64,000 nucleotides of DNA from Aliiroseovarius crassostreae (GTDB lineage Bacteria > Pseudomonadota > Alphaproteobacteria > Rhodobacterales > Rhodobacteraceae). Shown piece by piece: positions 9,431 through 24,292 of this stretch; position 1 is the stretch's first letter; every line of letters begins with the position of its first letter. The stretch lies in contig NZ_LKBA01000006.1 in NCBI RefSeq assembly GCF_001307765.1, forward strand, positions 524,001-588,000, read 5' to 3'. A program made the position numbers and the translations under genes. A model generated the notes under the pieces. That model ran no database searches, was not told where the DNA came from, and saw nothing but the letters and a program-made list of their open reading frames with translations.

Positions 9431-9442
9431 TGAAAGCTCCCT

Positions 9443-9523
9443 TGCCGGGGCTGGCCTACGCCCCGGCATTCCCTGCGCCCTCTCTTCATCCCCCTTGAAG
9501 AAGAGGGGGCGCGTTTTTCTTTT
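9443..9523 (+). terminator. Two consecutive hairpins ending in a T-run, between xsc and tauZ
   Basis: The first hairpin has perfect arms TGCCGGGGC and GCCCCGGCA (9443-9468). The second has 12-base arms GCGCCCTCTCTT and AAGAGGGGGCGC with one G-U pair (9475-9512), followed by GTTTTTCTTTT. The second is a good intrinsic terminator. The next gene starts 5 bases later in the same direction, so partial read-through or an attenuated operon is implied. Confidence 0.85.
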
Positions 9524-9528
9524 ACAGG

Positions 9529-10578
9529 ATGAAAGTGATGATGCAGGACAGAACAGCCCCCGCATTTGCACCCCGTATAGTGGCGTTTCTGCAGGACAAT
9601 TGGCGCGGATTTCTGGTGTCGGTCGTCGTGGCTGCGGCGGCACAGTTTTTGTCGGAACATTACGGCGCGCCTGCAATGCTGATGGCGCTGCTTCTGGGCA
9701 TTGCTTTTCATTTCCTGGCCGAAGACAGCGGCGGAGCGTGTAAAGCGGGGATTGAGTTCACCGCCCGCACCGTACTGCGCTTTGGTGTAGCGCTTTTAGG
9801 GGCCCGGATCAGCGTTGAGCTGATGGTGGGCCTTGGCCCGAAACTGATCGCGGTTGTTGTTCTCGGCGTGATCCTGACCATCCTGTTTGGCCTTCTGGTG
9901 GCGCGTATCCTTGGACGAGGGTGGCGTTTTGGTCTTTTGACCGGCGGTTCGGTGGCGATCTGTGGTGCATCCGCTGCGATGGCGATTGCCGCAGTCTTGC
10001 CCAAGAACGAACATTCTGAGCGCAACTTGATCTTTACCGTGTTGTCGGTCACGGTGTTGTCAACCATCGCAATGATCGCCTATCCGATCCTGACCGAGGC
10101 GTTTAACTTCAACGACGAAGTATCAGGCGTCTTCCTTGGCGGCACGATCCATGACGTGGCACAAGTTGTCGGCGCGGGTTTCTCGGTGTCGGATCAGGCA
10201 GGCGAAGTGGCCACGATGGTCAAACTGATCCGCGTGGCGATGCTGGCCCCGGTGGTGCTAATCATTTCGGTCTTGGTGCGCCGCTTTGCCGAAGACAATG
10301 CGGCTAAAGGCAAACGTCCGCCAATTCTGCCATCCTTCGTCATCGGCTTCCTCATTTTCGCCACCCTGAACTCGCTTGGCCTGATCCCGGCTGCTTTGGT
10401 CGACGCGATGTCGTCGCTCAGCCGTTGGGCGCTGTTGGTGTCGATTGCCGCTGTAGGCATGAAAACCTCGCTCAAACGCATTCTGGAAGTGGGCGGGCAG
10501 GCGATCGCGATGATCGTGGTCGAGACGATCTTTATCGCACTCTTTGTCCTCGCTGGCGTCCTGATGCTGGGCCACTAA
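9529..10578 (+). CDS. tauZ: YeiH/PSE1-family (UPF0324) putative sulfite or sulfate exporter (TauZ-like)
   Basis: A 349-residue membrane protein with about 10 hydrophobic segments. The family motif TGGSVAICGASAAMAIAAVL (around residue 145) and GGTIHDVAQVVGAGF are typical of the conserved YeiH group. In taurine operons of rhodobacteria a member of this family has been named TauZ and proposed to export the sulfite or sulfate left after Xsc. The export role is by association, not visible in sequence. ATG codons at 9538 and 9541 are possible alternative starts. It lies between xsc and pta. Confidence 0.8.
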   Translation: MKVMMQDRTAPAFAPRIVAFLQDNWRGFLVSVVVAAAAQFLSEHYGAPAMLMALLLGIAFHFLAEDSGGACKAGIEFTARTVLRFGVALLGARISVELMVGLGPKLIAVVVLGVILTILFGLLVARILGRGWRFGLLTGGSVAICGASAAMAIAAVLPKNEHSERNLIFTVLSVTVLSTIAMIAYPILTEAFNFNDEVSGVFLGGTIHDVAQVVGAGFSVSDQAGEVATMVKLIRVAMLAPVVLIISVLVRRFAEDNAAKGKRPPILPSFVIGFLIFATLNSLGLIPAALVDAMSSLSRWALLVSIAAVGMKTSLKRILEVGGQAIAMIVVETIFIALFVLAGVLMLGH

Positions 10579-10604
10579 GCAAATCCGTCGAGAAGGATCA
10601 CACG

Positions 10605-11636
10605 ATGAAACCGCTTGAAATGCTTTTGAAAAATGCAGCGCGCTCGCAAAAGAAGATCGTGCTGAGCGAAGGCGCTGATCCCCGTGCCGTAGCGGCGGCC
10701 ATTGAGGCCCGCGCGCAAGGGATCGCCCGGATTGTGCTGGTGGGGCCAAAGGCCGCCGTGCAGGCGGAACTTGCCCGTGCTGGGGCCACGTCAGGCGACG
10801 GGATCGACATTCAGGATCCAGCGACGTCACCCTTGTTGGATGATCTGGCTGCACTGTATCACAAGCTGCGCCAGCATAAGGGTGTTACCCCGGACATGGC
10901 CCGTGAAGCCGCACAATCACCGTATGTTTTCGCGGCTCTAATGGTCAAGTCAGGCCATGCTGACGGAACCGTCGGCGGTGCCGTTGCCACCACAGCCGAG
11001 ATCGTGCGCACGGCCATTCAGGTGATTGGCCCCAAGCCCGGTTCCAAGCTTATCTCAAGCTTCTTTCTTATGCTGTTCTGCAAAGAGCATCACACGAAGA
11101 AAGGCGCGCATATTTTCACCGACAGCGGACTGATCATAGACCCTTCGGCCGAAGAAATGGCGCAGATTGCACAGGCATCCGCCAAATCCTTCGTGGCCCT
11201 GACCGGCGACACGCCGCGGGTTGCGATGCTGTCGTTCTCGACGCGCGGAAGTGCCTCGCATGACAAAGTGTCGAAAGTGGTTAAGGCCACGGAACTGGCA
11301 CGGGCAGCCAACCCCGATCTGCTGATTGATGGCGAGCTTCAGTTTGACGCGGCATTTGTCCCGGATGTGGCGGCCTCCAAGGCCAGTGGATCGCCATTGG
11401 GGGGCGACGCGAACATCTTTGTCTTCCCCAATCTGGAAGCCGGTAACATCGCCTACAAAATCGCCCAGCGCGTGGGCGGAGCCGCGGCCATCGGCCCGAT
11501 CCTTCAGGGGCTCGCGCGCCCCGCCAACGACCTGTCGCGCGGGTGCTCTGCTGAGGACATCCTGCACATGATCGCCGTCACCGCCGCCCAGGCCGATGCC
11601 GCAGATATCTTGAAAGCTGAAGGAGAAGACGTATGA
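10605..11636 (+). CDS. pta: Phosphate acetyltransferase, short form (Pta)
   Basis: A 343-residue enzyme containing only the catalytic PTA_PTB domain. Family blocks are SEGADPRAVAAAIEARAQG near the start and the C-terminal DGELQFDAAF...SPLGGDANIFVFPNLEAGN region. It converts the acetyl phosphate from Xsc to acetyl-CoA. The start at 10605 follows AGAAGGATC; the longer open frame upstream overlaps tauZ and is not used. The stop codon overlaps the cupin start (ATGA), so the two are translationally coupled. Confidence 0.93.
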   Translation: MKPLEMLLKNAARSQKKIVLSEGADPRAVAAAIEARAQGIARIVLVGPKAAVQAELARAGATSGDGIDIQDPATSPLLDDLAALYHKLRQHKGVTPDMAREAAQSPYVFAALMVKSGHADGTVGGAVATTAEIVRTAIQVIGPKPGSKLISSFFLMLFCKEHHTKKGAHIFTDSGLIIDPSAEEMAQIAQASAKSFVALTGDTPRVAMLSFSTRGSASHDKVSKVVKATELARAANPDLLIDGELQFDAAFVPDVAASKASGSPLGGDANIFVFPNLEAGNIAYKIAQRVGGAAAIGPILQGLARPANDLSRGCSAEDILHMIAVTAAQADAADILKAEGEDV

Positions 11637-11998
11637 TCCCTCACGTTGTCGACCTTAGCAAAACGTCCGACGCCAAAACCTCGCGCCGTCTTGCAGACAT
11701 CCCGAATTGCGTGGTCGAGGGCGACCCCCATCAGGATATCTGGGTTCATTCGACAAGCCCGGATGGGAAGCTGACCGTTGGGGTTTGGACCTCGACCCCC
11801 GGCAAATGGCACGCCTTCGCGGGCAAGGAAGAGTATTGCTATATCGTGTCCGGCCGATGCGCCTTGATCCATGAAGACGGGACCCGGCAGGAATTCACTG
11901 CAGGTGGTTCGTTCTTCATTCCAGACGGCTTCAAAGGCTTCTGGGAAGTTATAGAAACCACCACAAAACATTTTGTCATTCGGGATACGAAGCCCTAA
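11633..11998 (+). CDS. Cupin-domain protein (DUF861/Cupin_3-like), last gene of the taurine operon
   Basis: A 121-residue single cupin. The first cupin motif region is around WHAFAGKEEYCYIVSGRCAL and the second around GGSFFIPDGFKGFWEVIETT. It matches the small Cupin_3 group (EutQ-like, ureidoglycine-hydrolase-like), many of which lack known activity. It overlaps pta by 4 bases, so it is made with it. Co-expression suggests a role in sulfonate or acetyl phosphate metabolism, but no function is established. The region after it has no clear terminator. Confidence 0.8.
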   Translation: MIPHVVDLSKTSDAKTSRRLADIPNCVVEGDPHQDIWVHSTSPDGKLTVGVWTSTPGKWHAFAGKEEYCYIVSGRCALIHEDGTRQEFTAGGSFFIPDGFKGFWEVIETTTKHFVIRDTKP

Positions 11999-13264
11999 AG
12001 CTTTGCTTCCCTCCCCAGCAGCCTCCCAAGTTTCCACTGAGAATTGCCTCATGTGAACACGTTTCCCTGACGGATTCGGGCGGGGATATCCCGAAACGCT
12101 TTAAGAGGCCTGTGCCGAAACTTGCTTCACAATTCGCGCTGACGCAACAGCACAACCGCATAGTAAAAGCGAGTTGGGCCGGACGTTAAATTCTGTAGTC
12201 GGGGCGGACAACATGGCCAAGCGCTTTATCTGGCTTGAGACAGTATCCTAAAATTTTAATGCCACCGCCCGATAGGGCGATGGCAAAATTTTAGTGGTCA
12301 GAGTTGCAATTTAAGCTGGTCAAATTGCAAACTGTTGTGGGCTTTCACAACAAAAACATGTGGCGCTCCATCTGACATTACCTATCCGCACATGAAAAAC
12401 CTTTTTGTATCAACACACTCATATCACATTGGCGCGGTATACTGACCAAAAAATTCAGAATGAATTACCTTCATTTAGTGAAGCGAACGAAGGCCTCGCC
12501 GCCCCTCCTTGAACAGCAAATCGTCACTCGGTTGCTCTAGGTTTTGCTAGAGTCCGAACCAACAATCTGAATAGAAGCGGCGTATCAATGATCCGGCGAG
12601 CCGCCGTTCGCCGCAGCGTTCTTGAAAGTTGGTAGTGCAGGACTTTGCCGCCCATTGCCCTTGCGGGTGCTTGCTGACGCAGCATTTACTCGCATGTGCA
12701 GCGCGCAATTTGCGGCAACACAGCGGATTTCACTAAACCAGACATTCACCCGCGCTGATCCTGTTGGATTTCAAACTGCCCTTTCGCCGCAACTAGGACC
12801 AGCCACCGAAGAGCCAGACATTCCCGCTTTTTGACAAACCGGTTCGGGTGTCCACTACCTGTGAAGATCTGGGGTCGCTTAAGGCTCAGGGCTAGATAGT
12901 ATGCTTAAATTGTTTATCAAGATGCCTTCATTCCGCTGGCGAAAGAGCGGCTACAGGCGCTCAAACCGGGATTTGGCATCAAAGTCTTCACCCAAAATCG
13001 CCTGCACCATTACGCCTTCATGTGCTGTAAATACGAGATCGATACAGGACCACGGTCGCGTACAGATCAAGCCACAGCACCAGCTTTGCTTAAATCGCCA
13101 CCACATAAAAACTGCTTTTTGAGCGGCGTGTCCGATCCGTTTCGAATCAAAAAAGTCAAGAACATTGCGTTGTCAAAAATCACCAAAGACAGGCTCAATT
13201 TAGACCAATATGCCTATCCCAAAAGTAAATATTGATATGTGTTAAACGAACAGCCGAGACCCAC
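11999..13264. other. Gene-free stretch at the left border of the low-GC island
   Basis: About 1.27 kb with no convincing coding region; the short open frames here have no family features. It contains a weaker CGTTTC/GAAACG dyad (12060-12098), the hairpin at 12249-12293, and a degenerate GC-rich block near 12640-12730. That block resembles a sequence at about 55225-55300 (both carry GCTGrCGCAGCATT followed by a GCAGCGC run). It looks like eroded intergenic or mobile DNA. Confidence 0.5.
12249..12293. terminator. AT-flanked hairpin, possible bidirectional terminator
   Basis: A stem of TGCCAcCGCCC with GGGCGaTGGCA (one mismatch) around GATA is flanked on both sides by TAAAATTTT-type runs. A GC stem with A-run before and T-run after in either direction fits a bidirectional rho-independent terminator. 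It stands between the taurine operon and the AlaX gene. Confidence 0.45.
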
Positions 13265-13984
13265 ATGCAAAGAGAATTTTACATCGAGAACCCGGAGACT
13301 TTTGTCATTGAGACAGCCGTCCAGGATGCGCTGCCAGGGCGGGTTTTGCTGGCCAACTCGCCTTTTTATCCAGGTGGCGGCGGACAGCTTCCTGATCAAG
13401 GTTGGCTGGATTTTGGAACAGCCAGAGTGAAAGTTAACGGGTTTTCCAGAGCCGGTGCGGGATGGTGGGTCAATCTGGAAGATGAAAACTATTTGGCCAG
13501 CGGTGATTTGATTGCAGAAGTGGACACTCACTTTCGTGAGAGTATGAGGCAGGTGCACACCGCAACGCATGTATTGAATGCCGTAATCTTCCGTGAATTT
13601 GAAAATGCCTTGGTGACAGGGGTGCAAATGTATGCCGACAAAACCGCAAGAATGGATTTCAACCTTCCAGACGTCGATAATAACAAAATTCGAGCGTTGG
13701 AGCCAACAGTAAACAACATTTTGGCGCAAGATCACAAAATTACCGACGAGTACATCGACTATGACGCGGCAGAACTTGAACCCGGGTTGATCCGCTCACA
13801 ATCGGCGGTACCACCTCGTACGCCAGACAACAAGCTTCGGATTGTCAATATCAATGAGGTTGACCGCCAAGCCTGTGGCGGCACGCATCTTCGAAACACA
13901 AGCGACTGCCCTCCAATTTCAATTGTGAAAATTGAAAATAAGGGTCGTCAAAACCGGCGTGTCAAAATCTCGATCGCTAAATAG
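13265..13984 (+). CDS. AlaX-like stand-alone alanyl-tRNA editing protein
   Basis: A 239-residue protein related to the editing and C-Ala-linked domain of alanyl-tRNA synthetase. It has the N-terminal barrel glycine motif FYPGGGGQLPDQG (about residues 34-46), HTATH at 98-102 and CGGTH at 204-208; the two His, the Cys and the last His are the zinc ligands of this hydrolase. AlaX proteins remove wrongly attached amino acids from tRNA. I start at ATG 13265; upstream in-frame codons lack a family match. It is the first gene of a co-directional set of biosynthesis-like genes, so it may protect the cell from a non-protein amino acid made by the cluster. That is inference. Confidence 0.88.
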   Translation: MQREFYIENPETFVIETAVQDALPGRVLLANSPFYPGGGGQLPDQGWLDFGTARVKVNGFSRAGAGWWVNLEDENYLASGDLIAEVDTHFRESMRQVHTATHVLNAVIFREFENALVTGVQMYADKTARMDFNLPDVDNNKIRALEPTVNNILAQDHKITDEYIDYDAAELEPGLIRSQSAVPPRTPDNKLRIVNINEVDRQACGGTHLRNTSDCPPISIVKIENKGRQNRRVKISIAK

Positions 13985-14030
13985 CGCTTGGCCTTTCTCT
14001 AATCAGAACGACAATTTCCAAGGAGGTGTT

Positions 14031-15176
14031 ATGTTATCCATTCGTGAGAAATATCTGGTCTTTCCGAACTTCACTCAAAATTTCTGGACTTGGCTAACAG
14101 GTAAGGCGTTGCCGAACCAAAAACCAATGTTTGTTTTTTCGCCACTGGCCCATTTCGTGACCGCTACCGCGTTGTGTTTTGGAGGCTTCGGCCTCAGCCT
14201 TGCAGCTTTCTATGGGCAGGTCAACATTCTCTGGTTGTTTGCAGGTTGGGCTATGGTAATTGCAGGCGGTCGCAAACTGGCCGCAGTTATTCTACACCAG
14301 TGTGTGCATCGTATGTTTAGCGGCAACATCAAGCTCGACAATTTCACAGGAGAGCTCGTTACCACGCTTTTGTGTACTCAGGATGCCATGAGCTATCGCA
14401 GCGATCACTTCGGATTGCACCACCGTGCGCTTACATTTGCTACCCAAAATGATCCAATTGTGAAGTTTTTGTCGGGGCACGGCATGACCCATGACATGAC
14501 GAAGAAAGAACTCTATGCGAAGTTCTTCACACGTATCCTTTCGCCAGTCTTTCATGCAAAATTCTTCTATTGCCGGTTAGTTTTCAATTTTGTCACCTGC
14601 GGACCGTGGAGACGCGCAGCATCTGTTGCCTTTTGGACGGCCATGATTTCGGCAGCTGTGCTGGCGCCGAACGGTTTGTTGGCATTCGTGCTGGTTTACG
14701 CAGTACCAGTTACTTTACTGTACCAGATCAGCGCGTTCGTTGAAATCTGTAGCGAACACGCATGGCTGGTGCCCGACGATCCCAACCAGAAAGTCGAAAA
14801 GAAATACTATCACGTCTTCAAATCCTGGGGTCGGTTCTGTGGTTCGGTACCGCCAACCGATATCGAGAAACCATTGTTACGTGCAATTCGTTGGGTTGGG
14901 TTCTGGATAGCAACAGTTTTTTACCATCTACCGGTTCGGCTATTCATTCTGATCGGGGATCTCCCACAACACGACTTTCATCATCGCCATCCATCCGAGA
15001 AAGATTGGGTTATTTCGGCTTACGCCCGTCAGCGTGACATCGACAACGGGCATGAAGGGTGGCCACCTTATCGCGAGTTCTGGGGTCTGCACAATGCCAT
15101 TGAGCATGTGTTTTCGGGCATGACCGATGCCATCCAGAAAAACAAGATTTCTGACGATGAAGGTTTGGCTGCATGA
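14031..15176 (+). CDS. Fatty-acid-desaturase-like di-iron membrane protein
   Basis: A 381-residue membrane protein with the three histidine boxes of the membrane desaturase/hydroxylase superfamily: HQCVH (89-93), HFGLHH (126-131) and HDFHH (314-318), plus hydrophobic segments at about 40-85 and 195-230. These bind two irons and use oxygen to insert a double bond or hydroxyl. A perfect ribosome site, AAGGAGG, precedes ATG 14031. In rhizobitoxine biosynthesis a protein of this superfamily, RtxC, desaturates an amino-acid derivative, and the setting here (amino-acid enzymes, no lipid genes) suggests a similar job. A plain lipid role cannot be excluded. It overlaps the next gene by 4 bases. Confidence 0.82.
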   Translation: MLSIREKYLVFPNFTQNFWTWLTGKALPNQKPMFVFSPLAHFVTATALCFGGFGLSLAAFYGQVNILWLFAGWAMVIAGGRKLAAVILHQCVHRMFSGNIKLDNFTGELVTTLLCTQDAMSYRSDHFGLHHRALTFATQNDPIVKFLSGHGMTHDMTKKELYAKFFTRILSPVFHAKFFYCRLVFNFVTCGPWRRAASVAFWTAMISAAVLAPNGLLAFVLVYAVPVTLLYQISAFVEICSEHAWLVPDDPNQKVEKKYYHVFKSWGRFCGSVPPTDIEKPLLRAIRWVGFWIATVFYHLPVRLFILIGDLPQHDFHHRHPSEKDWVISAYARQRDIDNGHEGWPPYREFWGLHNAIEHVFSGMTDAIQKNKISDDEGLAA

Positions 15177-16909
15177 TACCTCGAATTGAAACCCCAGCAA
15201 TTGAATTCTACGATACAACGCTTCGTGACGGCGCACAGACCGTTGGAGTAAAATACACGGTAGCCGAAAAGAGGTCGATTATAGCGTCTCTGGATCGGCT
15301 TGGTGTGGATTTTATTGAGTGCGGTTGGCCAGGGGCAAATCCTACGGACAATGTGTTGCTTCAAGATCCGCCGATGGTTCACCGCAGCGAGCTTGTTGCA
15401 TTTGGAATGACACGGCGAAAGGGAAACACGGCAGCAAACGATCCCACGATCCGGGCCTTGACCGAAGCAAAAGTCCCGAATGTGTGTTTGGTAGGCAAAT
15501 CTTCGTCGTGCCATGTACAGCATGCCTTGAATGGAACCAGCCGTCAGGACAATTTGGACATGATCGTGGATAGCATTGGTTATCTAAAACAAAGGAAAAA
15601 GAAGGTGTTTCTCGACGCAGAACACTTCTTTGATGGTTACAAACAAGATCGCGATTTTACTTTAAGCTGTGCGCTCAAGGCCTACGAGGCAGGTGCGGAA
15701 AAAGTTGTACTTTGCGACACGAACGGCGGCATTTTGCCCTCGGAAGTGTCCGAGATTCTGGTGGACGTAGCCCGGGTTCTACCGCTGGAAGCGGTCGGGG
15801 TCCATTTCCACAACGATCTTGGTCTTGCCGACGCCGCTAGCCTTCTGGCAGCTCAGGCGGGAGTAGGTCAAATCCAGGGCACGATTGCCGGGCTGGGAGA
15901 GCGATGCGGCAATGCGAATCTGTCTACGTTGCTACCGCTTGTAGCGTTCAAGTCGCGTGTGCCAACAAACGTCAGGAAAGAAATGCTCACTGTGTTGCCC
16001 GAAATCACGAACGATGTCGCCTTGAAAGCAGGCGTCAAGGTCGGCCAAAGCGCCCCATTTGTCGGCGAGAATGCATTCACCCATAAAGCTGGATTGCATG
16101 CATCTGCGGTAGGGAAGGATGGTAGCTTGTACGAGCACATTGATCCAAGGAATGTAGGGCGAAGCTCAAAAACCACACTTTCGTCACAGGCTGGGTTATC
16201 GAATCTGCGCATCTATCTAAAAAGACTGGGGGTTTCAGCATGTCAAAATGACGGGCGCCTGCAGGTCATCCTTGACGAAATCAAACAACGTGAATGTGAT
16301 GGCGAGAATGTCGAGTTGAATACCGGAAGTATTGACTTGTTGATTGCTCAGAATCTGTTCGACGTTGATCTGCCTCTCACACCCAAAGTTTTCGATGTTC
16401 GCGATACCGCTGATGCGTCCGGTCGGGATAGCCGGGCCAACGTTGAATTGTTTGTTGGTAAGTGTCGGAGAACAGTGCGTGCAAGCGCATCAGGTATCGG
16501 ATCTGTTGATGCCTTGAGCAATGCAATGGAATCGGCCTTGGCACAAGAATTTCCGGATATACCAAAGTTTTCACTTTTGGATTACTCGGCGGATATTGGC
16601 GCTGAGGCGATGGGGTCGCGGTCACGGGTGCAGGTTCAACTGAAGGCCTTGAGCACAGGGACAGATACTTGGCAGGTCGTAGCAACATCGAGCGACATTC
16701 TAACCGCCACGTGGGACGCATTTATCATCTGTGCCAATCGCCACCTCGTGTTTCAACAACTCAGGAAGAGTGCTGCGCAAGTTGGAGCACAGAAGGCCGA
16801 AAGTGCCTTTTTGCGGGCACCGTGTTCAGGCGGCTGCAATGAGCTGTTGGCTTCGAAGTTTGAAGACAAGACTAAACGTGCAATGGAGAAGGGAACTGTC
16901 AATGCTTAA
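15173..16909 (+). CDS. Citramalate / 2-isopropylmalate synthase homologue (LeuA/CimA family)
   Basis: A 578-residue DRE-TIM metallolyase. The N-terminal barrel starts EFYDTTLRDGAQTVGVKYT. Metal ligands are in VGVHFHNDLGLADA, and GLGERCGNANL follows. The C-terminal part (about residues 400-540) resembles the LeuA regulatory dimer domain. Overall it looks most like CimA-type citramalate synthases, which join acetyl-CoA to pyruvate; related enzymes extend other 2-oxo acids. No leuB, leuC or leuD partner lies in the window. It is coupled to both neighbours (4 and 8 base overlaps), so it belongs to this pathway and is unlikely to be a housekeeping copy. The true substrate is open. Confidence 0.83.
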   Translation: MIPRIETPAIEFYDTTLRDGAQTVGVKYTVAEKRSIIASLDRLGVDFIECGWPGANPTDNVLLQDPPMVHRSELVAFGMTRRKGNTAANDPTIRALTEAKVPNVCLVGKSSSCHVQHALNGTSRQDNLDMIVDSIGYLKQRKKKVFLDAEHFFDGYKQDRDFTLSCALKAYEAGAEKVVLCDTNGGILPSEVSEILVDVARVLPLEAVGVHFHNDLGLADAASLLAAQAGVGQIQGTIAGLGERCGNANLSTLLPLVAFKSRVPTNVRKEMLTVLPEITNDVALKAGVKVGQSAPFVGENAFTHKAGLHASAVGKDGSLYEHIDPRNVGRSSKTTLSSQAGLSNLRIYLKRLGVSACQNDGRLQVILDEIKQRECDGENVELNTGSIDLLIAQNLFDVDLPLTPKVFDVRDTADASGRDSRANVELFVGKCRRTVRASASGIGSVDALSNAMESALAQEFPDIPKFSLLDYSADIGAEAMGSRSRVQVQLKALSTGTDTWQVVATSSDILTATWDAFIICANRHLVFQQLRKSAAQVGAQKAESAFLRAPCSGGCNELLASKFEDKTKRAMEKGTVNA

Positions 16910-17642
16910 TACTATGGAAAAAGCCCATTCGGCGATGCCGACAAAGGTCAATGACCCTATCAATATGGTTGGTGGCTTTCGACTGGTGCCGGGCCAATAC
17001 TACAATCAGGGGCTGGATGAAACGGTGGTTTCTGATTTCCAGGGCCTGTTCGACGCCTCTATTGAACTGGATCCGTATTCGCCGGTTCGTGTGCGCGGCA
17101 TGTTGAAGATTGCCTACGATGTTGACAGCGATCAAATCACGATTAAGAAGGATCAGTTCTACCTTCAATCTGCCTCTGCCAATTCAACCGATGGGGGAGT
17201 TGTCCGGCGTTTTAAAGTTCTGCCGGAACAAATTCTGGAACACGCCTTCTTTCAGGCGGTTTGGTTCAAGGATAAAGAACTTTTGAAAGACTATGCAGAT
17301 CAAACCGGAATGACCAAGTTGGACCTCAGCATTCATTTCATACGTTATAGGGTGGAACCCGGCGGAGCGTCCTATAGTTCACCGGTCTGGCTGCATCAGG
17401 ACGACGAGCCGCTCGTGTTCATTCATCTTGTCAAGCTCACTGAGAACGCAATTGGTGCCGACAGTGTGGTCTCAGGAATGGACGACATGCCAACTGGTGT
17501 ATATCGTCTGAGCGAACCGTTTGATACGTTGATCGTCGATCCCACAATGAAACATGCTGTTACGCCACTCGGCTCGACGGGCGGCGAAGCCCACCGTGAC
17601 GTCATGCTGGTCAATCTAGAACACAGCATTCAGCAGAACTGA
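16902..17642 (+). CDS. 2-oxoglutarate/Fe(II) dioxygenase, L-isoleucine-dioxygenase (IDO)-like family
   Basis: A 246-residue protein of the 2OG-Fe_Oxy_2 type. Iron ligands are H165-x-D167 in WLHQDDEPLVFIHLVKL and H218 in PTMKHAVTPL, with a likely oxoglutarate-binding Arg 232 in HRDVMLVNL. The best-known member, IDO of Bacillus thuringiensis, hydroxylates free isoleucine at C4. That fits a cluster with a citramalate-synthase homologue (an isoleucine precursor route) and an exporter. ATG 16902 overlaps the previous stop by 8 bases and follows GAGAAGGGA. The exact amino-acid substrate is unknown. Confidence 0.82.
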   Translation: MLNTMEKAHSAMPTKVNDPINMVGGFRLVPGQYYNQGLDETVVSDFQGLFDASIELDPYSPVRVRGMLKIAYDVDSDQITIKKDQFYLQSASANSTDGGVVRRFKVLPEQILEHAFFQAVWFKDKELLKDYADQTGMTKLDLSIHFIRYRVEPGGASYSSPVWLHQDDEPLVFIHLVKLTENAIGADSVVSGMDDMPTGVYRLSEPFDTLIVDPTMKHAVTPLGSTGGEAHRDVMLVNLEHSIQQN

Positions 17643-17674
17643 ACTCAAGCAACATGGCCAGGGGACTTGCAAGC

Positions 17675-18571
17675 ATGTCGGTAATCGCAAAGATAAATGC
17701 ATTTGATGATGAGTACGTTGGCCGAATTGCTATGGTGATAGCGATGGCGTTGTCGGGAACTATCGGGCTTTTTGTGGTCTGGTCTGGTCATCCCGCCTAC
17801 AACGCCATCGCCTATCGATGCACCATTGGCCTGGCAGTCCTGTTCTTGTATTGTCGATTTTTCGGCATCCTCAAATTCAGGAATATCCCCAATAAAGAAA
17901 AAATATACATCATTGCAGGTGGGGTAACATTGGTGCTGAATTGGTTTTTCCTGTTTTCAGCTTTTAACAAATCGACCATCGGGATCACGACAGTAGTATA
18001 CAATATTCAACCGTTTCTCCTTGTCTTATTGGGGTTCCTCATTTTTCGTGAAAAGCTGACTTCGACGGCCGCCATTTGTCTAGGAGTTTCATTCGCAGGC
18101 CTTGTCGTCATTGTTAATCCGGACTTGGAGTTCTCCGGAGAGTCAATCAGCTTCTTAACCGGCCTGTTCTTTGCCTTTGTTGCCGCTGCTCTGTATGCAG
18201 TTTCAACGATTTTTACCAAAATGGTAAAATCAGTTCGGCCTGAGATGGTCGCAGTTTATCACATGATCATTGGATCCGCGTTGTTCTTGCCATTCTATAC
18301 AGCGGATTTTGCAAATGCTGCGAATGCGGAAGCAGTGTATTTGGTGATACTTGGCCTCCTTCATACAGGTGTCATGTATATTTTTCTCTATACTGCCTTT
18401 TCCAAAGCAACGACCGCGAGCATCTCGGTTCTGTCATTTATTTACCCACTAGTTGCGGTCGCGGCGGATTTCATTTTCTTCGGAACACCTTTGACTCTAC
18501 CCCAGCTTGTTGGATCCGCAATGATTATAGGTTCGAGCTATGTGTATAATACGCAGAAAGCAAAATCATAG
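17675..18571 (+). CDS. EamA/DMT-family transporter, probable exporter of the cluster product
   Basis: About 298 residues with ten hydrophobic segments in two EamA repeats; the second half has GLLHTGVMYIFLYTAFSKAT. EamA proteins such as RhtA and YdeD export amino acids and small metabolites. ATG 17675 is preceded by AGGGGA; an upstream ATG at 17654 would add seven residues but has a poor ribosome site. It follows the dioxygenase by about 30 bases. Base composition is strikingly AT-rich (22 G+C in 60 at 17881-17940). From 18572 to 18811 I see no gene. Confidence 0.85.
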   Translation: MSVIAKINAFDDEYVGRIAMVIAMALSGTIGLFVVWSGHPAYNAIAYRCTIGLAVLFLYCRFFGILKFRNIPNKEKIYIIAGGVTLVLNWFFLFSAFNKSTIGITTVVYNIQPFLLVLLGFLIFREKLTSTAAICLGVSFAGLVVIVNPDLEFSGESISFLTGLFFAFVAAALYAVSTIFTKMVKSVRPEMVAVYHMIIGSALFLPFYTADFANAANAEAVYLVILGLLHTGVMYIFLYTAFSKATTASISVLSFIYPLVAVAADFIFFGTPLTLPQLVGSAMIIGSSYVYNTQKAKS

Positions 18572-18811
18572 AATATGGAATGCCGTTACTTGGAGAACCA
18601 TTAACGATTATCATTACAGCGGCGAGGATCTAAACCTTAGGGTGTTTGATACGCCGTTACTTGAATCGTGGCATGTATCAGTAAAGAGCAACAGATGGAA
18701 AAGCGGAATTTACAAGGCAGAAAACCAAATCAAGTCGACAGTACCCTCCAACACACGCTGCGCATTCGTTGTGCGATTTCGCGCAATATCGCAAGATTAG
18801 ATTGAGTTAAT

Positions 18812-19507
18812 ATGCGTCCTTGTAGCAGTTTAGACCCAGATGCCCTCCTCGAAGGCACTAATGTTTCTATGTTCTTTTCGATTTTCTCGAACGCCTTGGT
18901 CGGTGCATCGGTACCCGGCACGTTGACAAAAATACGAAAGAATTCGTCCAAGATTGCCAACAACGCTTCGCCGGATGAGCTTACCGGCTGTCTGCTTGCC
19001 ACGCTAGCCGCAAGCAAGCCTGCCGGCCAGATGCTGGAATTGGGAACTGGCACCGGTGTGTCTGCTTCCTGGCTCTTGTCGGGAATGGATGCACAGTCGA
19101 GTTTGCATTCGGTAGAACTTGATAACGAATTGGCAGAATTTGCCCAGCAGGAACTGGCAAACGACAAGCGTTTCTCGCGTATCGTCAGCGATGCAGCTCA
19201 ATATTTCGAAACTATACCTTCAGGGTATTTTGACTTGATTTTTGCAGCCAATTGTCCCGACAAGCCTATTCATCTTAACCTTGCCGTGCGCGGCTTGAAG
19301 CCCGGCGGGTTTTACATTCTAGACAACTTACTGCCGCAGGCAAACCGACTGGACGCGCACAACGCAAAGCTTCCGGGCTTGTTGACATCATTGATGGGAA
19401 ACCCAGAGTTAATCATATTGCCGTTGGACTGGTCCACAGGCGTCGTAATCGCCGTGAAAATCCCGAGCGTCTGCAATCCGACAGTCAACTTGACGAAGGC
19501 GCAATAA
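18812..19507 (+). CDS. SAM-dependent class I methyltransferase (O-methyltransferase-like)
   Basis: A 231-residue Rossmann methyltransferase. Motif I is MLELGTGTGVSASWLLSGMD (about residues 72-91). The acidic end of strand 2 is in LHSVELDNELAEFAQ, and SGYFDLIFAANCPDKP and LKPGGFYILDNLL follow. The arrangement resembles small-molecule O-methyltransferases. It lies 240 bases after the exporter in the same direction, so it may be co-transcribed or have its own promoter. In the cluster it could methylate a hydroxyl placed by the dioxygenase, giving for example a methoxy amino acid; this is inference. Confidence 0.78.
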   Translation: MRPCSSLDPDALLEGTNVSMFFSIFSNALVGASVPGTLTKIRKNSSKIANNASPDELTGCLLATLAASKPAGQMLELGTGTGVSASWLLSGMDAQSSLHSVELDNELAEFAQQELANDKRFSRIVSDAAQYFETIPSGYFDLIFAANCPDKPIHLNLAVRGLKPGGFYILDNLLPQANRLDAHNAKLPGLLTSLMGNPELIILPLDWSTGVVIAVKIPSVCNPTVNLTKAQ

Positions 19508-19905
19508 TATGCGTTTCAAACCCTTTGTCTAAGTTACCAAGCATCAGGAAACCAGTCATCATCTAGTCTCGAGTTATGCGACGGGCGGCAGACCCCTGAA
19601 TTGGTTTAGTGTCGGAGGTCAAGGTTTGGGCTGTGCAATCCGCCTAGTAGATTATGGAGGCGTCGTAGGAAACAGGCACATTGCAGTCATGCTTCGACTG
19701 CACGTGCGATCAGAATATGAAACACAATTTACACTAACTTTGGGCCTCAAACTAAGCCGCGAACGCTGGATTAGTGACCGAATAGGCAGAAAAACGCTGA
19801 CGGATTCACTGCTGTCTTCTTATGCGCTGTACGCTGCAATCGGTACACGCTAAGAGCGATTTGCATCATCTTAAAAGTGACCACTGCCTGAAACAAATTT
19901 TCAAC
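19508..19905. other. Intergenic region before the AraC gene
   Basis: About 400 bases with no supported gene. The short open frames here show no family features. It probably holds the promoter of the AraC gene and the 3' end of the methyltransferase transcript; no clear terminator was found. Confidence 0.5.
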
Positions 19906-20721
19906 ATGCCTCGCACTGAAGTAAAAGACACGGTCAAATTTTGGCAAGATCCCCAAACTAAGGGGATGGATTTCATGTCTGCGCAATTCACTTCGAAACG
20001 CTTTCCTATGCACGCTCATGACTCTTTTGTGATTGCGTTCACAGATGGCGGTGGATCTTGTTTTCGGAGCAATAGATCGTCAGGCGAGGTAAAAAGAAAG
20101 CAATTTCTAGTATTCAACCCTTGGGAAGCACATGCTGGCTGGTTGGGGCGCAGTAAGGATTGGTCTTATAGAGCAATTTATGTGTACGACGACGCCGTCG
20201 AACAACTCAAGCAGAGATTAAGGATCAACGGTTCGGTGAGTTTTTCGAACAACTTAATCTTAGACGACCAACTGCATGAAGAGTTTTCGCGGCTGCACCA
20301 CTCGTTTGAAATGAATACAGATTTCTTTGCCCAACGAGAAAACCTGTATGCTGCCTTCAACAGTCTATTTTTGCGGTATGGTCACGTCAAAACTAGTGAA
20401 ACAATTGCACAGGCTGATGAATATCGACTTCGTCTCGCTAAGGAATTCATTCACGATCGCTATGCAGAAAAGCTGACCATTGAAGAGGTGGCTGCTGAAA
20501 TTGACCTTTCGTGCTTTCAAATGATCAAACTTTTTCAGAAGAGTATGGGAATCACTCCCTATGCCTATTTAACACAAGTTCGCCTTTGCCGAGCGATTCA
20601 GTTGATCAAACAAGGCGTCTCTCTTTCCAGCGCCGCTCTGGACACTGGGTTTTATGATCAGAGCGCACTGACAAACCATTTAAAGCGCTGCTATGCGATT
20701 ACGCCTTCCCAGTTGAGATAG
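19906..20721 (+). CDS. AraC-family transcriptional regulator
   Basis: A 271-residue protein with an N-terminal cupin-like sensing domain (PMHAHDSFVIAFTDGGGSC near residue 32) and a C-terminal double helix-turn-helix (about 175-271). That domain contains LTIEEVAAEIDLSCFQMIKL and the closing ALDTGFYDQSALTNHLKRCY. ATG 19906 is preferred over an upstream in-frame start at 19822, as the latter adds residues without family match. It is the last co-directional gene of the island cluster and is the natural candidate to control it in response to a small molecule. Confidence 0.85.
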   Translation: MPRTEVKDTVKFWQDPQTKGMDFMSAQFTSKRFPMHAHDSFVIAFTDGGGSCFRSNRSSGEVKRKQFLVFNPWEAHAGWLGRSKDWSYRAIYVYDDAVEQLKQRLRINGSVSFSNNLILDDQLHEEFSRLHHSFEMNTDFFAQRENLYAAFNSLFLRYGHVKTSETIAQADEYRLRLAKEFIHDRYAEKLTIEEVAAEIDLSCFQMIKLFQKSMGITPYAYLTQVRLCRAIQLIKQGVSLSSAALDTGFYDQSALTNHLKRCYAITPSQLR

Positions 20722-20752
20722 ATTTAATCCATTAAGTGAGCCAGTCGGTTGC

Positions 20753-21469
20753 TTAATGAGGTAAATTCGCCTGACCGATCGCCGTGACGCAAGGTGTTTC
20801 GTTGTCAAACTGGCCGCCCGCCATGCCAGTCGAAGAGCGAAGATTGCCCTGACCAGATTGGGCTACGATCTGAGTGTCCAGGTCTCTTAAATTTGAAATG
20901 AACCCATCCGAACTAATCAGATACAGGAGATGAGATTCAAAACTATCGAACTTCTCATAAGACGGTGGACCGAAAGTCTCTTTGACTTGGGCAAACACCG
21001 TTTCTGCTGAGGGGCGATCATTTCCAACTGCAACAATGGTTCTCTGAACACCCAAGACACGCCCTTCGAGAACACCAGTCGCCAGAGACAGGATCACTTC
21101 CTCATATGGTTCCTGGCCCATGCGCATAAACGGCGTTACCCATGGCGATAGCATCCGCTGGGCATACTCGTATCGGAATTCACGCCCTTTCGAACTACGC
21201 ACATTAAGAGTCACCAGTTCGTCGACAAGTTGTTGATCGAAATGTGCCAGAAGCGCTTCAATCGCTTCAAAAGCCATATCACCCGGGCTGACATCCAAGA
21301 CCGAAAATGTGGTCGCCTTACGCTCAGGTTTTGATGTCAGTGGTTGCAGTTTTGTTTCTGCAAATGCCTCGATCGGGCAGAGGCCAAAAACCAGGACCAC
21401 AGAAAAGATTTTGGGCCAAAGACGAGCAGAGCTCATTGCTCCGCAACAAGATTGGATAAGTGTTTTCAC
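20753..21469 (-). CDS. Secreted protein of unknown function
   Basis: About 238 residues with a signal peptide (hydrophobic run IFSVVLVFGLCPIEAFA, cleaved after AFA). I do not recognise the mature domain. The mature part carries two cysteines only at the end of the protein region (one in NETPCV) and is mostly charged and helical-looking. I choose GTG at 21469 because GAGAGGGTG precedes it; ATG 21493 and ATG 21436 are alternatives. It is convergent with the AraC gene and divergent from the small XRE gene. No function is proposed. Confidence 0.6.
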   Translation of the reverse strand: MKTLIQSCCGAMSSARLWPKIFSVVLVFGLCPIEAFAETKLQPLTSKPERKATTFSVLDVSPGDMAFEAIEALLAHFDQQLVDELVTLNVRSSKGREFRYEYAQRMLSPWVTPFMRMGQEPYEEVILSLATGVLEGRVLGVQRTIVAVGNDRPSAETVFAQVKETFGPPSYEKFDSFESHLLYLISSDGFISNLRDLDTQIVAQSGQGNLRSSTGMAGGQFDNETPCVTAIGQANLPH

Positions 21470-21554
21470 AAATGCACCCTCTCGGCGTAACACAACTACG
21501 AATGTATGTTAAAACAGGTAGAGTTAAAACCGGCGTTGCTCAATAGACTTGTGT

Positions 21555-21779
21555 GTGAAAAGAACGCCGAAAAGCCCCCTCAGAGACACTGTCGCCCGGA
21601 ACATGCGCAAGTTTCGGGCTGAGCGCGGTTGGTCTCAGGAGCGTCTCGCGGAAGAGGCTGGTTTGAATAGAACCTACCTTAGCGCAGTCGAGCGTTCTGA
21701 ACAGAATATATCCATTGATAATCTGTACCGGGTTGCGGTTGGATTGGGTGTCGAAAGCTGGGTTCTCTTAAAAGACTGA
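21555..21779 (+). CDS. Small XRE-family helix-turn-helix protein
   Basis: About 74 residues, almost entirely one Cro/C1-type HTH (MRKFRAERGWSQERLAEEAG followed by LNRTYLSAVERSEQNIS). There is no ATG at the N-terminus of the domain, so GTG 21555 or TTG 21549 must be used; no strong ribosome site is visible. Proteins like this act as stand-alone repressors in mobile or accessory DNA. It sits at the right border of the low-GC island, next to core gene nrdJ. A hairpin (GGCCATTTAGT with ACTAAAATGGCC, 21842-21867) lies between the two convergent genes and may end transcription. Confidence 0.75.
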   Translation: MKRTPKSPLRDTVARNMRKFRAERGWSQERLAEEAGLNRTYLSAVERSEQNISIDNLYRVAVGLGVESWVLLKD

Positions 21780-21906
21780 ACATGCCTTGTGCGATTGGGA
21801 ATTCATATCGCCACAGCGCTGATCTTTTAACGACGGGGTATCGGCCATTTAGTGACTAAAATGGCCGTGTCACCTGACGCACCACAACAGCGCCCCACCC
21901 GTCAGG

Positions 21907-24162
21907 TCAGCCGCATTTCGAATGGCCGCAGCTACCGCAGGTCATGCAGCCTTCAACCATGCGCATGTCATATTGGCCACAGCTTGGGCAGGCGGGGCCA
22001 CGCGGGGCTTCGCCGATGGCCATGACCTCGGCCTGCGGATCCGATTTCGGGGCCATGCCTTCCGCTTCGAGGAAGCCGGTATTGACCATGTGGCGTTCGA
22101 TAACGCCGCCGATCGCGGCCAGGATCGACGGGATGTATTTCCCTTCCATCCAGGCACCGCCACGCGGGTCGAACACGGCTTTCAGCTCTTCGACCACAAA
22201 GCTCACCTCACCGCCACGACGGAACACCGCCGAAATCATCCGGGTCAGCGCCACGGTCCAGGCGAAATGTTCCATGTTCTTCGAGTTGATGAACACTTCA
22301 AACGGGCGGCGATGGCCGTTGATCAGAAGGTCATTGATGGTGATGTAAAGCGCGTGTTCGCTGTCGGGCCATTTCACCTTGTAGGTATGCCCTTCGAGCG
22401 ATTGCGGACGGCCCAGCGGCTCGGACAGGTAGACCACATCGGCACCGGTTTCGATCTCGGGCGTCTTTTCGCTTTCCTCGCTCACCGACAGAACCGACCC
22501 GGTCACATCGTTCGGGCGATAGGTGGTGCAGCCTTTGCAACCCAGTTCCCACGCCTGCATGTAAACCGACTGGAACGCGTCAAAGCTGATGTCTTCCGGG
22601 CAGTTGATGGTTTTCGAAATCGAGCTGTCGATCCATTTCTGCGCAGCGGCCTGCATTTTCACGTGATCCGCGGGCGCAAGCGTCTGCGCGTTCACGAAAT
22701 AATCCGGCAGCGGCTTGTCCCCGAATTTGTCACGCCACATCTGCACCGCGTAATCGACCACTTCTTCCTCGGTGCGGGTGCCGTCGGGTTGCAGCACCTT
22801 ACGGGTGTAAGCATAGGCAAAGACCGGCTCGATGCCCGAGCTGACATTGCCGGCGTAAAGCGAAATGGTGCCGGTGGGGGCAATCGAGGTCAGCAGCGCG
22901 TTGCGGATGCCGTGTTCACGGATTGCTTCGCGCACGTCATCATCCATCTGCAGCATATTGCCGGAATTCAGATAGGCCTCGGCGTCGAACAGCGGGAACG
23001 GGCCTTTCTCTTTCGCCAGATCCACGGATGCCAGGTAAGACGCGCGGGCGATGAGTTTCATCCAGGCTTCGGTCTGGGCCGCGGCCTCATCCGAGCCATA
23101 ACGCAGGCCGAGCATCAGCAGCGCATCGGCCAGACCGGTCACACCAAGACCCACACGGCGCTTGGCCTGGGCTTCCTGACGCTGTGCTTCAAGCGGGAAG
23201 CGCGACACATCCACCACATTGTCCATCATGCGGATCGCGGTGCGCACCAGTTTATCGAGCGCCTTCGGATCCAGCTTTGCGTTTTTCTCAAACGGGTTTT
23301 TCACAAGGCGGGCCAGGTTGACCGACCCGAGCAGGCAGGCGCCATAAGGCGGCAGGGGTTGTTCGCCGCACGGGTTGGTCGCGGCAATCTGCTCGCAGTA
23401 ATTCAGGTTGTTCATCTGGTTGATGCGGTCGATGAAAATCACACCCGGTTCGGCGTAATCATAGGTGGCGCGCATGATCTTGTTCCACAGATCGCGGGCC
23501 TCAACCGTGTGATAGATCTTGTCGCCAAACTTCAGATCCCAGCTGCCATCGTCCTTGACCGCTTTCATGAAATCATCGGTCACCAGCACCGACATGTTGA
23601 ACATGCGCAGACGGGCCGCATCCGATTTGGCGGTGATGAAATCTTCGATATCCGGGTGGTCGCAACGCATGGTCGCCATCATCGCCCCCCGGCGCGAGCC
23701 TGCCGACATGATGGTGCGGCACATCGCATCCCACACATCCATGAACGAGAGCGGCCCGGAAGCATCCGCCGCCACGCCTTTCACATCGGCGCCACGCGGA
23801 CGGATGGTCGAGAAATCATAGCCGATCCCCCCACCCTGCTGCATGGTCAGCGCGGCCTCTTTCAACATGTCGAAAATGCCCGACATGCTGTCCGGGATCG
23901 TGCCCATCACAAAGCAGTTGAAAAGCGTCACGGACCGGCCGGTGCCGGCACCCGCGGTGATGCGCCCGGCGGGCAGGTATTTGAAATCTTCCAGAGCTTC
24001 GAAAAACTCACCCTCACGCTCCGGCTCATTTTCCGCAAGCGAACGGGCAATGCGCCGCCAGGTATCTTCGACCGTCTTGTCTTCAGCCTCCCCACCCGAC
24101 TTTTTCAGTCGGTATTTCATGTCCCAGATCTGTTCGGCAATAGGGGCGGCAAAACGAGTCAT
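21907..24162 (-). CDS. nrdJ: Adenosylcobalamin-dependent ribonucleotide reductase (class II, NrdJ)
   Basis: A 751-residue class II reductase that converts ribonucleotides to deoxyribonucleotides with coenzyme B12. Visible family blocks are FNCFVMGTIPDSMSGIFDML, RRGAMMATMRCDHPDIEDFI, the active-site region ATNPCGEQPLPPYGACLLGS, and a cysteine-rich tail (CPSCGQ, CMTCGSCGHSKCG) that takes part in reduction. ATG at 24162 is chosen; the upstream open frame lacks conservation. Two NrdR-like boxes lie 131-178 bases upstream. A 747-codon open frame on the opposite strand is a shadow caused by high GC. Confidence 0.95.
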   Translation of the reverse strand: MTRFAAPIAEQIWDMKYRLKKSGGEAEDKTVEDTWRRIARSLAENEPEREGEFFEALEDFKYLPAGRITAGAGTGRSVTLFNCFVMGTIPDSMSGIFDMLKEAALTMQQGGGIGYDFSTIRPRGADVKGVAADASGPLSFMDVWDAMCRTIMSAGSRRGAMMATMRCDHPDIEDFITAKSDAARLRMFNMSVLVTDDFMKAVKDDGSWDLKFGDKIYHTVEARDLWNKIMRATYDYAEPGVIFIDRINQMNNLNYCEQIAATNPCGEQPLPPYGACLLGSVNLARLVKNPFEKNAKLDPKALDKLVRTAIRMMDNVVDVSRFPLEAQRQEAQAKRRVGLGVTGLADALLMLGLRYGSDEAAAQTEAWMKLIARASYLASVDLAKEKGPFPLFDAEAYLNSGNMLQMDDDVREAIREHGIRNALLTSIAPTGTISLYAGNVSSGIEPVFAYAYTRKVLQPDGTRTEEEVVDYAVQMWRDKFGDKPLPDYFVNAQTLAPADHVKMQAAAQKWIDSSISKTINCPEDISFDAFQSVYMQAWELGCKGCTTYRPNDVTGSVLSVSEESEKTPEIETGADVVYLSEPLGRPQSLEGHTYKVKWPDSEHALYITINDLLINGHRRPFEVFINSKNMEHFAWTVALTRMISAVFRRGGEVSFVVEELKAVFDPRGGAWMEGKYIPSILAAIGGVIERHMVNTGFLEAEGMAPKSDPQAEVMAIGEAPRGPACPSCGQYDMRMVEGCMTCGSCGHSKCG

Positions 24163-24292
24163 TGAAGCTTTCTTTCGGCTATCTTGTTGAAATCTTTCGG
24201 GGCGCACGCACACAGCATCCGCTTGCCCCATCCTGTCAGGGATGACATTTATACCAGAGAGGGGCAGGCTGTCACCAGCTATGTTCAAAAAA

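What the first reader, a model, noticed from the sequence alone, without database searches (positions are those of the whole stretch)
13265..19507. Unrecognised amino-acid-type biosynthesis cluster: AlaX, desaturase, CimA-like, IDO-like dioxygenase, EamA exporter, methyltransferase
Six co-directional genes (with overlaps of 4 and 8 bases between the desaturase, synthase and dioxygenase) combine chain building (CimA/LeuA family), oxidation by a di-iron desaturase-like and a 2OG-Fe enzyme, methylation, export and a tRNA-editing protein. An AraC regulator follows. I know no described pathway with exactly this set. The best reading is synthesis and export of a modified free amino acid, perhaps unsaturated, hydroxylated or methoxylated, with AlaX as protection.
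Basis: partly seen in the sequence, partly recalled or inferred. Interest (0 to 1): 0.92.

Follow-up and report, generated by a model that had tools for sequence, protein, structure and literature searches.

The report
Isoleucine-type amino acid modification cluster
A foreign block of genes in an alphaproteobacterium probably makes, oxidises and exports an unusual isoleucine-like amino acid, and a second, unrelated bacterium carries a parallel version built partly from different enzymes, which makes the pathway testable.

Summary
The six genes, their direction and the 4- and 8-base overlaps are real. They lie in a low-GC block, apparently an insertion of about 9.55 kb beside nrdJ. The dioxygenase is HilB-like (33% identical to HilB, second enzyme of the Pantoea isoleucine dihydroxylation operon). 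One unrelated genome (G450) repeats di-iron enzyme, dioxygenase (53%) and EamA, but with threonine deaminase IlvA where the window has CimA; both lead to 2-ketobutyrate, the entry to isoleucine. The two di-iron enzymes fall in different clades, so the pairing arose twice or one partner was replaced, and close relatives of each lie by AzlCD branched-chain amino-acid exporters. The window CimA has a decayed regulatory domain; the G450 IlvA has Phe where 31 of 31 references have Leu. Both fit escape from isoleucine feedback, though G450 showed no second full-length IlvA. Best reading: a variant of the Hil/IDO theme in which a membrane di-iron enzyme replaces HilA, fed by its own 2-ketobutyrate enzyme and exported by EamA; AlaX is possible self-protection; the methyltransferase link is weak. 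No product or activity is shown, and the core set was found in only two genomes.

The parts
12354..21906 (.). Low-GC block, apparently inserted (genomic island)
   Evidence: GC 0.47-0.50 vs about 0.59; G014 joins the nrdJ end to a homologue of 12260-12353
13265..13984 (+). AlaX-type trans-editing protein (GGGGQ at residue 37, HTATH at 98, CGGTH at 204)
   Evidence: best plasmid relative 47.5% in A. tumefaciens pAt beside a DMT transporter
14031..15176 (+). Membrane di-iron oxygenase of the FA_desaturase family; proposed first oxidation of the amino acid
   Evidence: PF00487, weak GntB match; invariant His H89/H93, H126/H130/H131, H243, H314/H317/H318 in 12 aligned rows; clade apart from RtxC and the sampled FA desaturases
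15173..16909 (+). Citramalate-synthase-family enzyme with a decayed regulatory domain; proposed 2-ketobutyrate supply
   Evidence: TIGR00977 420 bits; second copy at G000:C20, 40% identical; regulatory decay with controls
16902..17642 (+). HilB-like PF10014 Fe(II)/2-oxoglutarate dioxygenase; proposed second oxidation (starts 16902 or 16914)
17654..18571 (+). EamA/DMT exporter
   Evidence: PF00892; 43% identical to the G450 partner
18812..19507 (+). Class I SAM methyltransferase; membership in the pathway uncertain
19822..20721 (+). AraC-family regulator; relatives stand at loci L140, L015 and L030
   Evidence: phmmer E 1.8e-53, 4e-32, 1.6e-30; a large family, so weak evidence

Best explanation
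The block makes and exports an oxidised isoleucine-type amino acid. (1) A second CimA makes citramalate from pyruvate and acetyl-CoA, giving extra 2-ketobutyrate that escapes isoleucine feedback; housekeeping enzymes carry it on to L-isoleucine (inferred from family, from the IlvA replacement and from regulatory-domain decay). (2) The membrane di-iron enzyme oxidises the free amino acid at a side-chain carbon, most likely by hydroxylation, doing the job that HilA does in Pantoea (inferred). (3) The HilB-like 2-oxoglutarate dioxygenase oxidises the product again, probably at C4 (inferred from family). (4) EamA exports the product (inferred). (5) AlaX may clear tRNA mischarged with a product or intermediate, and AraC may control the set (both inferred). 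The methyltransferase may tailor the product but is not part of the recurring core. Shown here: gene content, low-GC block, recurrence in a second genome with IlvA for CimA, separate clades of the two di-iron enzymes, the AzlCD context of their relatives, and the altered regulatory domains.
For: Recurrence: G450 (L031) has di-iron enzyme 9954-11102, dioxygenase 11112-11843, EamA to 12756 and IlvA 12753-14345, same strand, where GC is 0.50-0.57 against 0.63-0.71 on both sides, beside an integrase. Dioxygenase 53% identical, EamA 43%. IlvA identity: TIGR01124 618.7 bits against 411.3. A looser third case: an Agrobacterium vitis plasmid (L013) has a di-iron enzyme of the clade, a haem-oxygenase-like enzyme and a distant PF10014 dioxygenase (22% to the window's) in a row. 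Dioxygenase: 33% to HilB of G273, which scores 457.3 against 350 as HilB; best solved relatives 8w8h and IDO 6lnh; HxD and distal His kept. HilA/HilB chemistry and RhtA-type exporter or PALP genes in some Hil operons: PMC3684760, parts 1-4 of 5 read. Exporter context: AzlC+AzlD beside or within two genes of the di-iron gene in L010, L014, L030 and as annotated in L015; an EamA or LysE gene within 6 kb in the window, L031, L032, L013: together 8 of 12 distinct loci. AzlC is otherwise rare: 5 in 7 whole genomes, one of them at L030. L010 also has a 2Fe-2S ferredoxin next to the di-iron gene. Two di-iron clades: 0% of 200 bootstrap trees unite window and G450. CimA: regulatory identity to 20 alphaproteobacterial references 0.24 with 24/44 conserved positions changed, while four CimAs taken as housekeeping (Nonomuraea, Monoglobus, Sinorhizobium, Azospirillum) have 0.39-0.59 and 2-10/44; S. 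cadmiisoli (0.24, 24/44) and S. albidoflavus beside a PKS gene (0.31, 20/44) resemble the window. G450 IlvA: Phe at E. coli position 447, Leu in 31 of 31 references.
Against: No activity or metabolite is known. The core set was found in only two genomes; further searches with the dioxygenase found no third (1 of 298; 1 of 258; in each the one is G450). Of 59 PF10014 places in 398 genomes, 2 stand beside a di-iron gene. Both dioxygenases score far below the HilB equivalog cut-off (124.9 and 137.7 against 350). In G450 no second full-length IlvA was found, only weak or short matches, so its IlvA may serve primary metabolism rather than be a dedicated copy. The catalytic part of the window CimA also differs at 32 of 137 conserved positions, among them D112S, so its 2-oxo acid may not be pyruvate. 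Azospirillum CimA shows a higher ratio of regulatory to catalytic change (10/44 vs 4/137), and S. lunaelactis CimA, beside a condensation-domain gene, shows little decay (11/44), so decay is not a clean marker; 15 of the 20 references are from the window's genus, and the p-values treat positions as independent. The tree carries a long-branch warning. AlaX and the methyltransferase were not found at the G450 locus. That L447F frees IlvA from isoleucine is recalled, not found in the held papers.
Confidence: 0.55

Rival explanations
1. The product comes from 2-ketobutyrate without passing through isoleucine: transamination gives L-2-aminobutyrate, which the di-iron enzyme and dioxygenase turn into a small unsaturated or hydroxylated C4 amino acid. 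AlaX fits better, because small amino acids are the ones AlaRS mischarges (recalled).
For: AlaX in the block; CimA/IlvA interchange fits any 2-ketobutyrate product; the Hil paper reports that PF10014 enzymes also act on leucine and threonine.
Against: The dioxygenase is nearest to HilB/IDO among those compared; relatives of the di-iron enzymes lie with AzlCD, named for branched-chain amino acids; AlaX was not found at the G450 locus.
Confidence: 0.2
2. The synthase has a new specificity and extends a different 2-oxo acid, building a carbon skeleton that primary metabolism does not make; the oxygenases then work on the resulting homologated amino acid.
For: 32 of 137 conserved catalytic-domain positions are changed, among them D112S, and HNDL where the alphaproteobacterial references have mostly Thr in place of that Leu.
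Against: Best family is still citramalate synthase (420 bits against 231 for the next, 2-isopropylmalate synthase); G450 has IlvA in its place, which yields 2-ketobutyrate from threonine.
Confidence: 0.13
3. Ordinary juxtaposition: a lipid desaturase, a spare leucine/isoleucine-pathway enzyme, an unrelated dioxygenase and a generic exporter carried in by chance on one island.
For: Rarity (2 genomes found); families individually common; no second full-length IlvA seen in G450.
Against: Overlaps of 4 and 8 bases; three of the gene families recur adjacent in an unrelated genome; the di-iron enzyme falls in a clade apart from the sampled FA desaturases (97/97).
Confidence: 0.06

Closest known systems
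Hil operon of Pantoea ananatis (HilA/HilB L-isoleucine dihydroxylation; PMC3684760, parts 1-4 of 5 read)
   Same: HilB-family dioxygenase after a first amino-acid oxygenase; RhtA/EamA-type exporter and a PALP enzyme occur in some Hil operons
   Different: HilA is replaced by a membrane di-iron enzyme; no HilR, HilP or HilC; a CimA (or IlvA) and AlaX are added; AraC instead of LysR
IDO operon of Bacillus thuringiensis (isoleucine 4-dioxygenase + reductase + RhtA exporter)
   Same: PF10014 enzyme on a free amino acid plus exporter
   Different: One oxygenase only, with a reductase; no precursor enzyme or tRNA editing gene is mentioned (as described in PMC3684760)
GntB, guanitoxin L-arginine gamma-hydroxylase (NCBIfam model; PMC10367076 seen in passages)
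   Same: Transmembrane enzyme acting on a free amino acid; the only NCBIfam model that the window enzyme matched at E <= 0.001
   Different: 44.9 bits against a cut-off of 380; no arginine pathway genes in the block
RtxC, dihydrorhizobitoxine desaturase (PMC6304460, PMC5789663 seen in passages)
   Same: FA_desaturase-family enzyme on an amino acid, with a LysE exporter nearby in Paraburkholderia phymatum
   Different: Different clade (97/97); 26% over 122 residues; no RtxA-type genes in the block
FthB/FthC of Streptomyces (4-fluorothreonine; PMC7408626 seen in passages)
   Same: aminoacyl-tRNA deacylase plus exporter as self-protection for a non-protein amino acid
   Different: FthB is ProXp-ST1-related, not AlaX (PMC11295145, passages)

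Membership tests
Hil operon | HilB equivalog (NF042428 cut-off 350 bits) | tested here: not met
   124.9 bits; 33% identity to a HilB that passes the model
Hil operon | HilA dioxygenase beside HilB | tested here: not met
   No such ORF among those listed and scanned in the block; a di-iron enzyme and CimA stand there instead
Hil operon | HilR, HilP, HilC core genes | tested here: not met
   AraC instead of LysR; no solute-binding or SDR gene among the ORFs scanned
Hil operon | Conversion of L-isoleucine to 4,4'-dihydroxyisoleucine | not testable with these tools
   needs enzyme assay
PF10014 dioxygenases | Pfam gathering score, HxD...H iron site | tested here: met
   115.4 bits against 23.1; HQD and distal His
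Citramalate synthase (TIGR00977) | Equivalog cut-off 450 bits | tested here: not met
   420.1 bits; next best family 231: best read as a diverged CimA
Citramalate synthase (TIGR00977) | Condenses pyruvate with acetyl-CoA | not testable with these tools
   needs assay
GntB | Equivalog cut-off 380 bits | tested here: not met
   44.9 bits
RtxC (rhizobitoxine) | Clusters with RtxC in a tree | tested here: not met
   Separate clades, 97/97; RtxC row taken from the P. phymatum operon
AlaX-M editing proteins | HxxxH and CxxxH zinc motifs of the editing domain (motifs recalled) | tested here: met
   HTATH at 98, CGGTH at 204; PDB AlaRS/AlaX relatives
AlaX-M editing proteins | NF040865 equivalog cut-off 300 | tested here: not met
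   174.5 bits

The most novel reading that the evidence does not exclude
A clade of membrane di-iron enzymes (window, Pseudoalteromonas, Klebsiella plasmid, Paraburkholderia and others, many near AzlCD, EamA or LysE exporters) is a family of oxygenases for free, mainly branched-chain amino acids. Twice it was paired with the same HilB-like dioxygenase, each time with its own 2-ketobutyrate enzyme altered in its isoleucine-sensing domain, to make an exported isoleucine-derived compound not yet described, with AlaX as tRNA-level self-protection in the window.
Probability: 0.4. Interest if true: 0.78.

Novelty: new variant of a known kind. Interest (0 to 1): 0.62.

Why it matters
It would add a new enzyme class to free-amino-acid C-H oxidation. 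It offers a natural example of two non-homologous entry enzymes (CimA, IlvA), each changed in its feedback domain, recruited to the same pathway; that is useful for isoleucine and hydroxy-amino-acid engineering. It also gives a short gene set that can be expressed to find a new metabolite, and a test of whether a cluster-borne AlaX protects a producer.

Tried and rejected
Rhizobitoxine/RtxC kinship: rejected, separate clade. Lipid desaturase: not favoured, clade apart from the sampled FA desaturases. FthB as an AlaX relative: my recollection was wrong; PMC11295145 (passages) calls FthB ProXp-ST1-related. Repeats bounding the block: none convincing in 11900-22000. tRNA genes: none in the window or L031. 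Rfam on 11900-22000: nothing at gathering score. Promoter and terminator scans: no more than shuffles. Viral contigs: no relatives of dioxygenase or di-iron enzyme confirmed. Di-iron profile against PDB sequences: no credible match. Papers: (six terms, three required) found none; one search found 604 papers holding three of five terms, of which I saw only the listing of 12; one search listed 4. No paper describing this gene set was seen; the library lacks most subscription papers.
Full report
What is there. The finding's six genes, direction and overlaps are real. They sit in a block with GC 0.47-0.50 in a region of about 0.59, GC3 0.475-0.584 against 0.653-0.732 in pta, cupin and nrdJ. In congener G014 the end of nrdJ is followed within about 20 bp by sequence 88% identical to window 12260-12353, so a block of about 9.55 kb (12354-21906) looks inserted. 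This rests on one of five congeners fetched; the other four did not show that piece. The block also holds an AraC gene, a hypothetical gene on the minus strand and a short ORF near 21600 that reads like a helix-turn-helix regulator (by eye).

Families. AlaX, an FA_desaturase-family enzyme, a citramalate-synthase-family enzyme, a PF10014 dioxygenase, EamA, a class I methyltransferase, AraC. Four of them stay below the NCBIfam cut-off of their best named model: AlaXM 174.5/300, GntB 44.9/380, citramalate synthase 420.1/450, HilB 124.9/350. The genome has a second CimA at G000:C20, 40% identical.

Recurrence. With the di-iron enzymes as a profile, 11 of 398 genomes of the phylum matched at 1e-10, six of them at 1e-60 or better, the window's own included. 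One of these, G450, carries di-iron enzyme, dioxygenase and EamA in a row, followed by IlvA. The dioxygenases are 53% identical and the EamA proteins 43%. The G450 set lies where GC is 0.50-0.57 against 0.63-0.71 on both sides, beside an integrase. CimA and IlvA are unrelated enzymes that both lead to 2-ketobutyrate, the entry to isoleucine. This replacement is the strongest pointer to an isoleucine-type product. Against a dedicated role: in G450 the search with this IlvA gave no second full-length copy, only weak or short matches, so it may be that genome's main IlvA. More searches with the dioxygenase found no third case: order of the window 1 of 292, family of G450 1 of 298, class of G450 1 of 258, each the known one. 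Of 59 PF10014 places in 398 genomes, 2 are beside a di-iron gene. A looser case outside that sample is the Agrobacterium vitis plasmid L013, with a di-iron enzyme of the clade, a haem-oxygenase-like enzyme and a distant PF10014 protein (22% to the window's) in a row.

The Hil theme. Genome G273 carries a locus (L099) in which HilB passes the model (457.3/350) and the gene before it begins with the residues encoded by the HilA cloning primer in the paper. Its other genes (LysR, solute-binding, SDR, ligase, MFS) I named by eye from their first residues, in the published order. The window dioxygenase is 33% identical to this HilB, and its best solved relatives are 8w8h and the isoleucine hydroxylase 6lnh. 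PMC3684760 (parts 1-4 of 5 read) shows that HilA hydroxylates isoleucine at C4' and HilB then at C4, and that RhtA-type exporters and a PALP enzyme occur in some Hil operons. The window lacks HilA, HilR, HilP and HilC, so it is not a Hil operon; it may work like one, with the di-iron enzyme as the proposed first oxygenase.

The di-iron enzymes. Eleven rows form a clade apart from RtxC and the sampled FA desaturases (97/97, in 94% of 200 bootstrap trees). Window and G450 enzymes lie in different parts of it; no bootstrap tree of 200 unites them, though that tree carries a long-branch warning. So the pairing with the dioxygenase arose twice, or one partner was replaced. Left out of the trees: G250 (L033), a strong match whose frame start was unclear; L011, a second strain of the L010 species; and outgroup loci L025 (both trees) and L026, in which the script found no matching ORF. 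Neighbours in 12 distinct loci: AzlC with AzlD beside or within two genes in L010, L014, L030 and L015; EamA or LysE within 6 kb in the window, L031, L032, L013; none recognised in L012 (5 kb contig), L016 (an NRPS locus), L033 and L034, whose neighbours were only partly scanned. AzlC is otherwise rare, 5 in 7 genomes, one of them at L030. L010 has a 2Fe-2S ferredoxin between AzlD and the di-iron gene, as a di-iron oxygenase would need.

Feedback. Against 20 alphaproteobacterial CimAs (20 of the 25 other places; 15 from the window's own genus) the window enzyme keeps 48% identity in the catalytic part but 24% in the regulatory part, with 24 of 44 conserved regulatory positions changed against 32 of 137 catalytic ones (25 of 44 in the first alignment). 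Controls, eight fetched of 243 plasmid records matched: Nonomuraea and Monoglobus, with catalytic identity 0.49 and 0.46, keep 0.46 and 0.39 in the regulatory part (5 and 10 of 44 changed); Sinorhizobium 2 of 44; Azospirillum 10 of 44, a high ratio because only 4 of 137 catalytic positions changed; Streptomyces NBC_01718 9 of 44. Three turned out to have neighbours of a biosynthetic type: S. cadmiisoli (24/44) and S. albidoflavus (20/44) are decayed, S. lunaelactis (11/44) is not. In the G450 IlvA, position 447 (E. coli numbering) is Phe where 31 of 31 references have Leu (E. coli plus the 30 best-scoring of 78 matches, 60 of them over the family's cut-off); 9 of 42 conserved regulatory positions are changed against 6 of 91 catalytic ones. 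I recall that L447F frees E. coli IlvA from isoleucine (Chinchilla 1998; only its title was seen, in a reference list). No held paper seen confirmed the residue.

AlaX, AraC and the methyltransferase. AlaX has its zinc motifs. Its best plasmid relative (47.5%, A. tumefaciens pAt) stands next to a DMT transporter and an amino-acid dehydrogenase, with an AraC related to the window's (E 1.8e-53) on the other side, one TetR gene between. Within the genus 19 of 20 other genomes carry an AlaX that is 34-37% identical; at 1e-10 the window's genome shows only the block's copy. So AlaX and AraC may be a transferable protection-and-control unit, but which tRNA this AlaX edits is unknown. The methyltransferase has a 240-bp gap before it, no counterpart found at G450, and the three relatives fetched, of 37 records matched, stand in unrelated settings.

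Verdict. A new variant of the Hil/IDO kind, well supported as an amino-acid modification and export block, moderately supported as isoleucine-derived, with no direct evidence of product. The small number of core loci (two) is the main weakness.

Noticed in passing
window 7658-11998: Left of the block: sulfoacetaldehyde acetyltransferase (xsc, 1026.9 bits), a PF03601 membrane protein and phosphate acetyltransferase, which looks like a taurine/sulfonate degradation set.
   Followed up: no
G000:C9:80464-82434 and window 21907-24288: The window's genome has two nrdJ matches (the second 79% identical to the first); the other 19 genus members with a match at 1e-100 show one each.
   Followed up: no
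window 12261-12284: Near-perfect hairpin GCCACCGCCCGATAGGGCGATGGC, unique in the window; its homologue follows nrdJ in G014 and may be the nrdJ terminator, now separated by the insertion.
   Followed up: partly
L014:11200-11640 and L034:8330-8824: A DUF2000 protein stands next to the di-iron enzyme in both loci, so DUF2000 may serve the same chemistry.
   Followed up: partly
L010:9645-9905: A 2Fe-2S ferredoxin gene lies between azlD and the di-iron gene in Pseudoalteromonas rubra.
   Followed up: yes
L012:478-4858: Algicola contig with what looks by eye like a cobalamin-mutase small subunit, an FAD monooxygenase and a class III aminotransferase, then the di-iron enzyme: possibly another amino-acid pathway.
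   Followed up: no
L013:9908-13839: Agrobacterium vitis plasmid: di-iron enzyme, haem-oxygenase-like iron enzyme, PF10014 dioxygenase and dapF in a row, another amino-acid oxidation set.
   Followed up: partly
L142:6147-15426: Streptomyces plasmid with annotated methylaspartate mutase parts, an EamA relative of the window's, aspartate kinase, semialdehyde dehydrogenase, TauD and LeuCD: looks like a non-protein amino-acid cluster.
   Followed up: no
L099:7508-8392: The HilA of the canonical Hil locus matches the Pfam model of the halogenase WelO5 (42.6 bits).
   Followed up: no
G000 (whole genome): 19 of 20 other genomes of the genus carry a 34-37% identical AlaX elsewhere; at 1e-10 the window's genome shows only the block's AlaX.
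   Followed up: no
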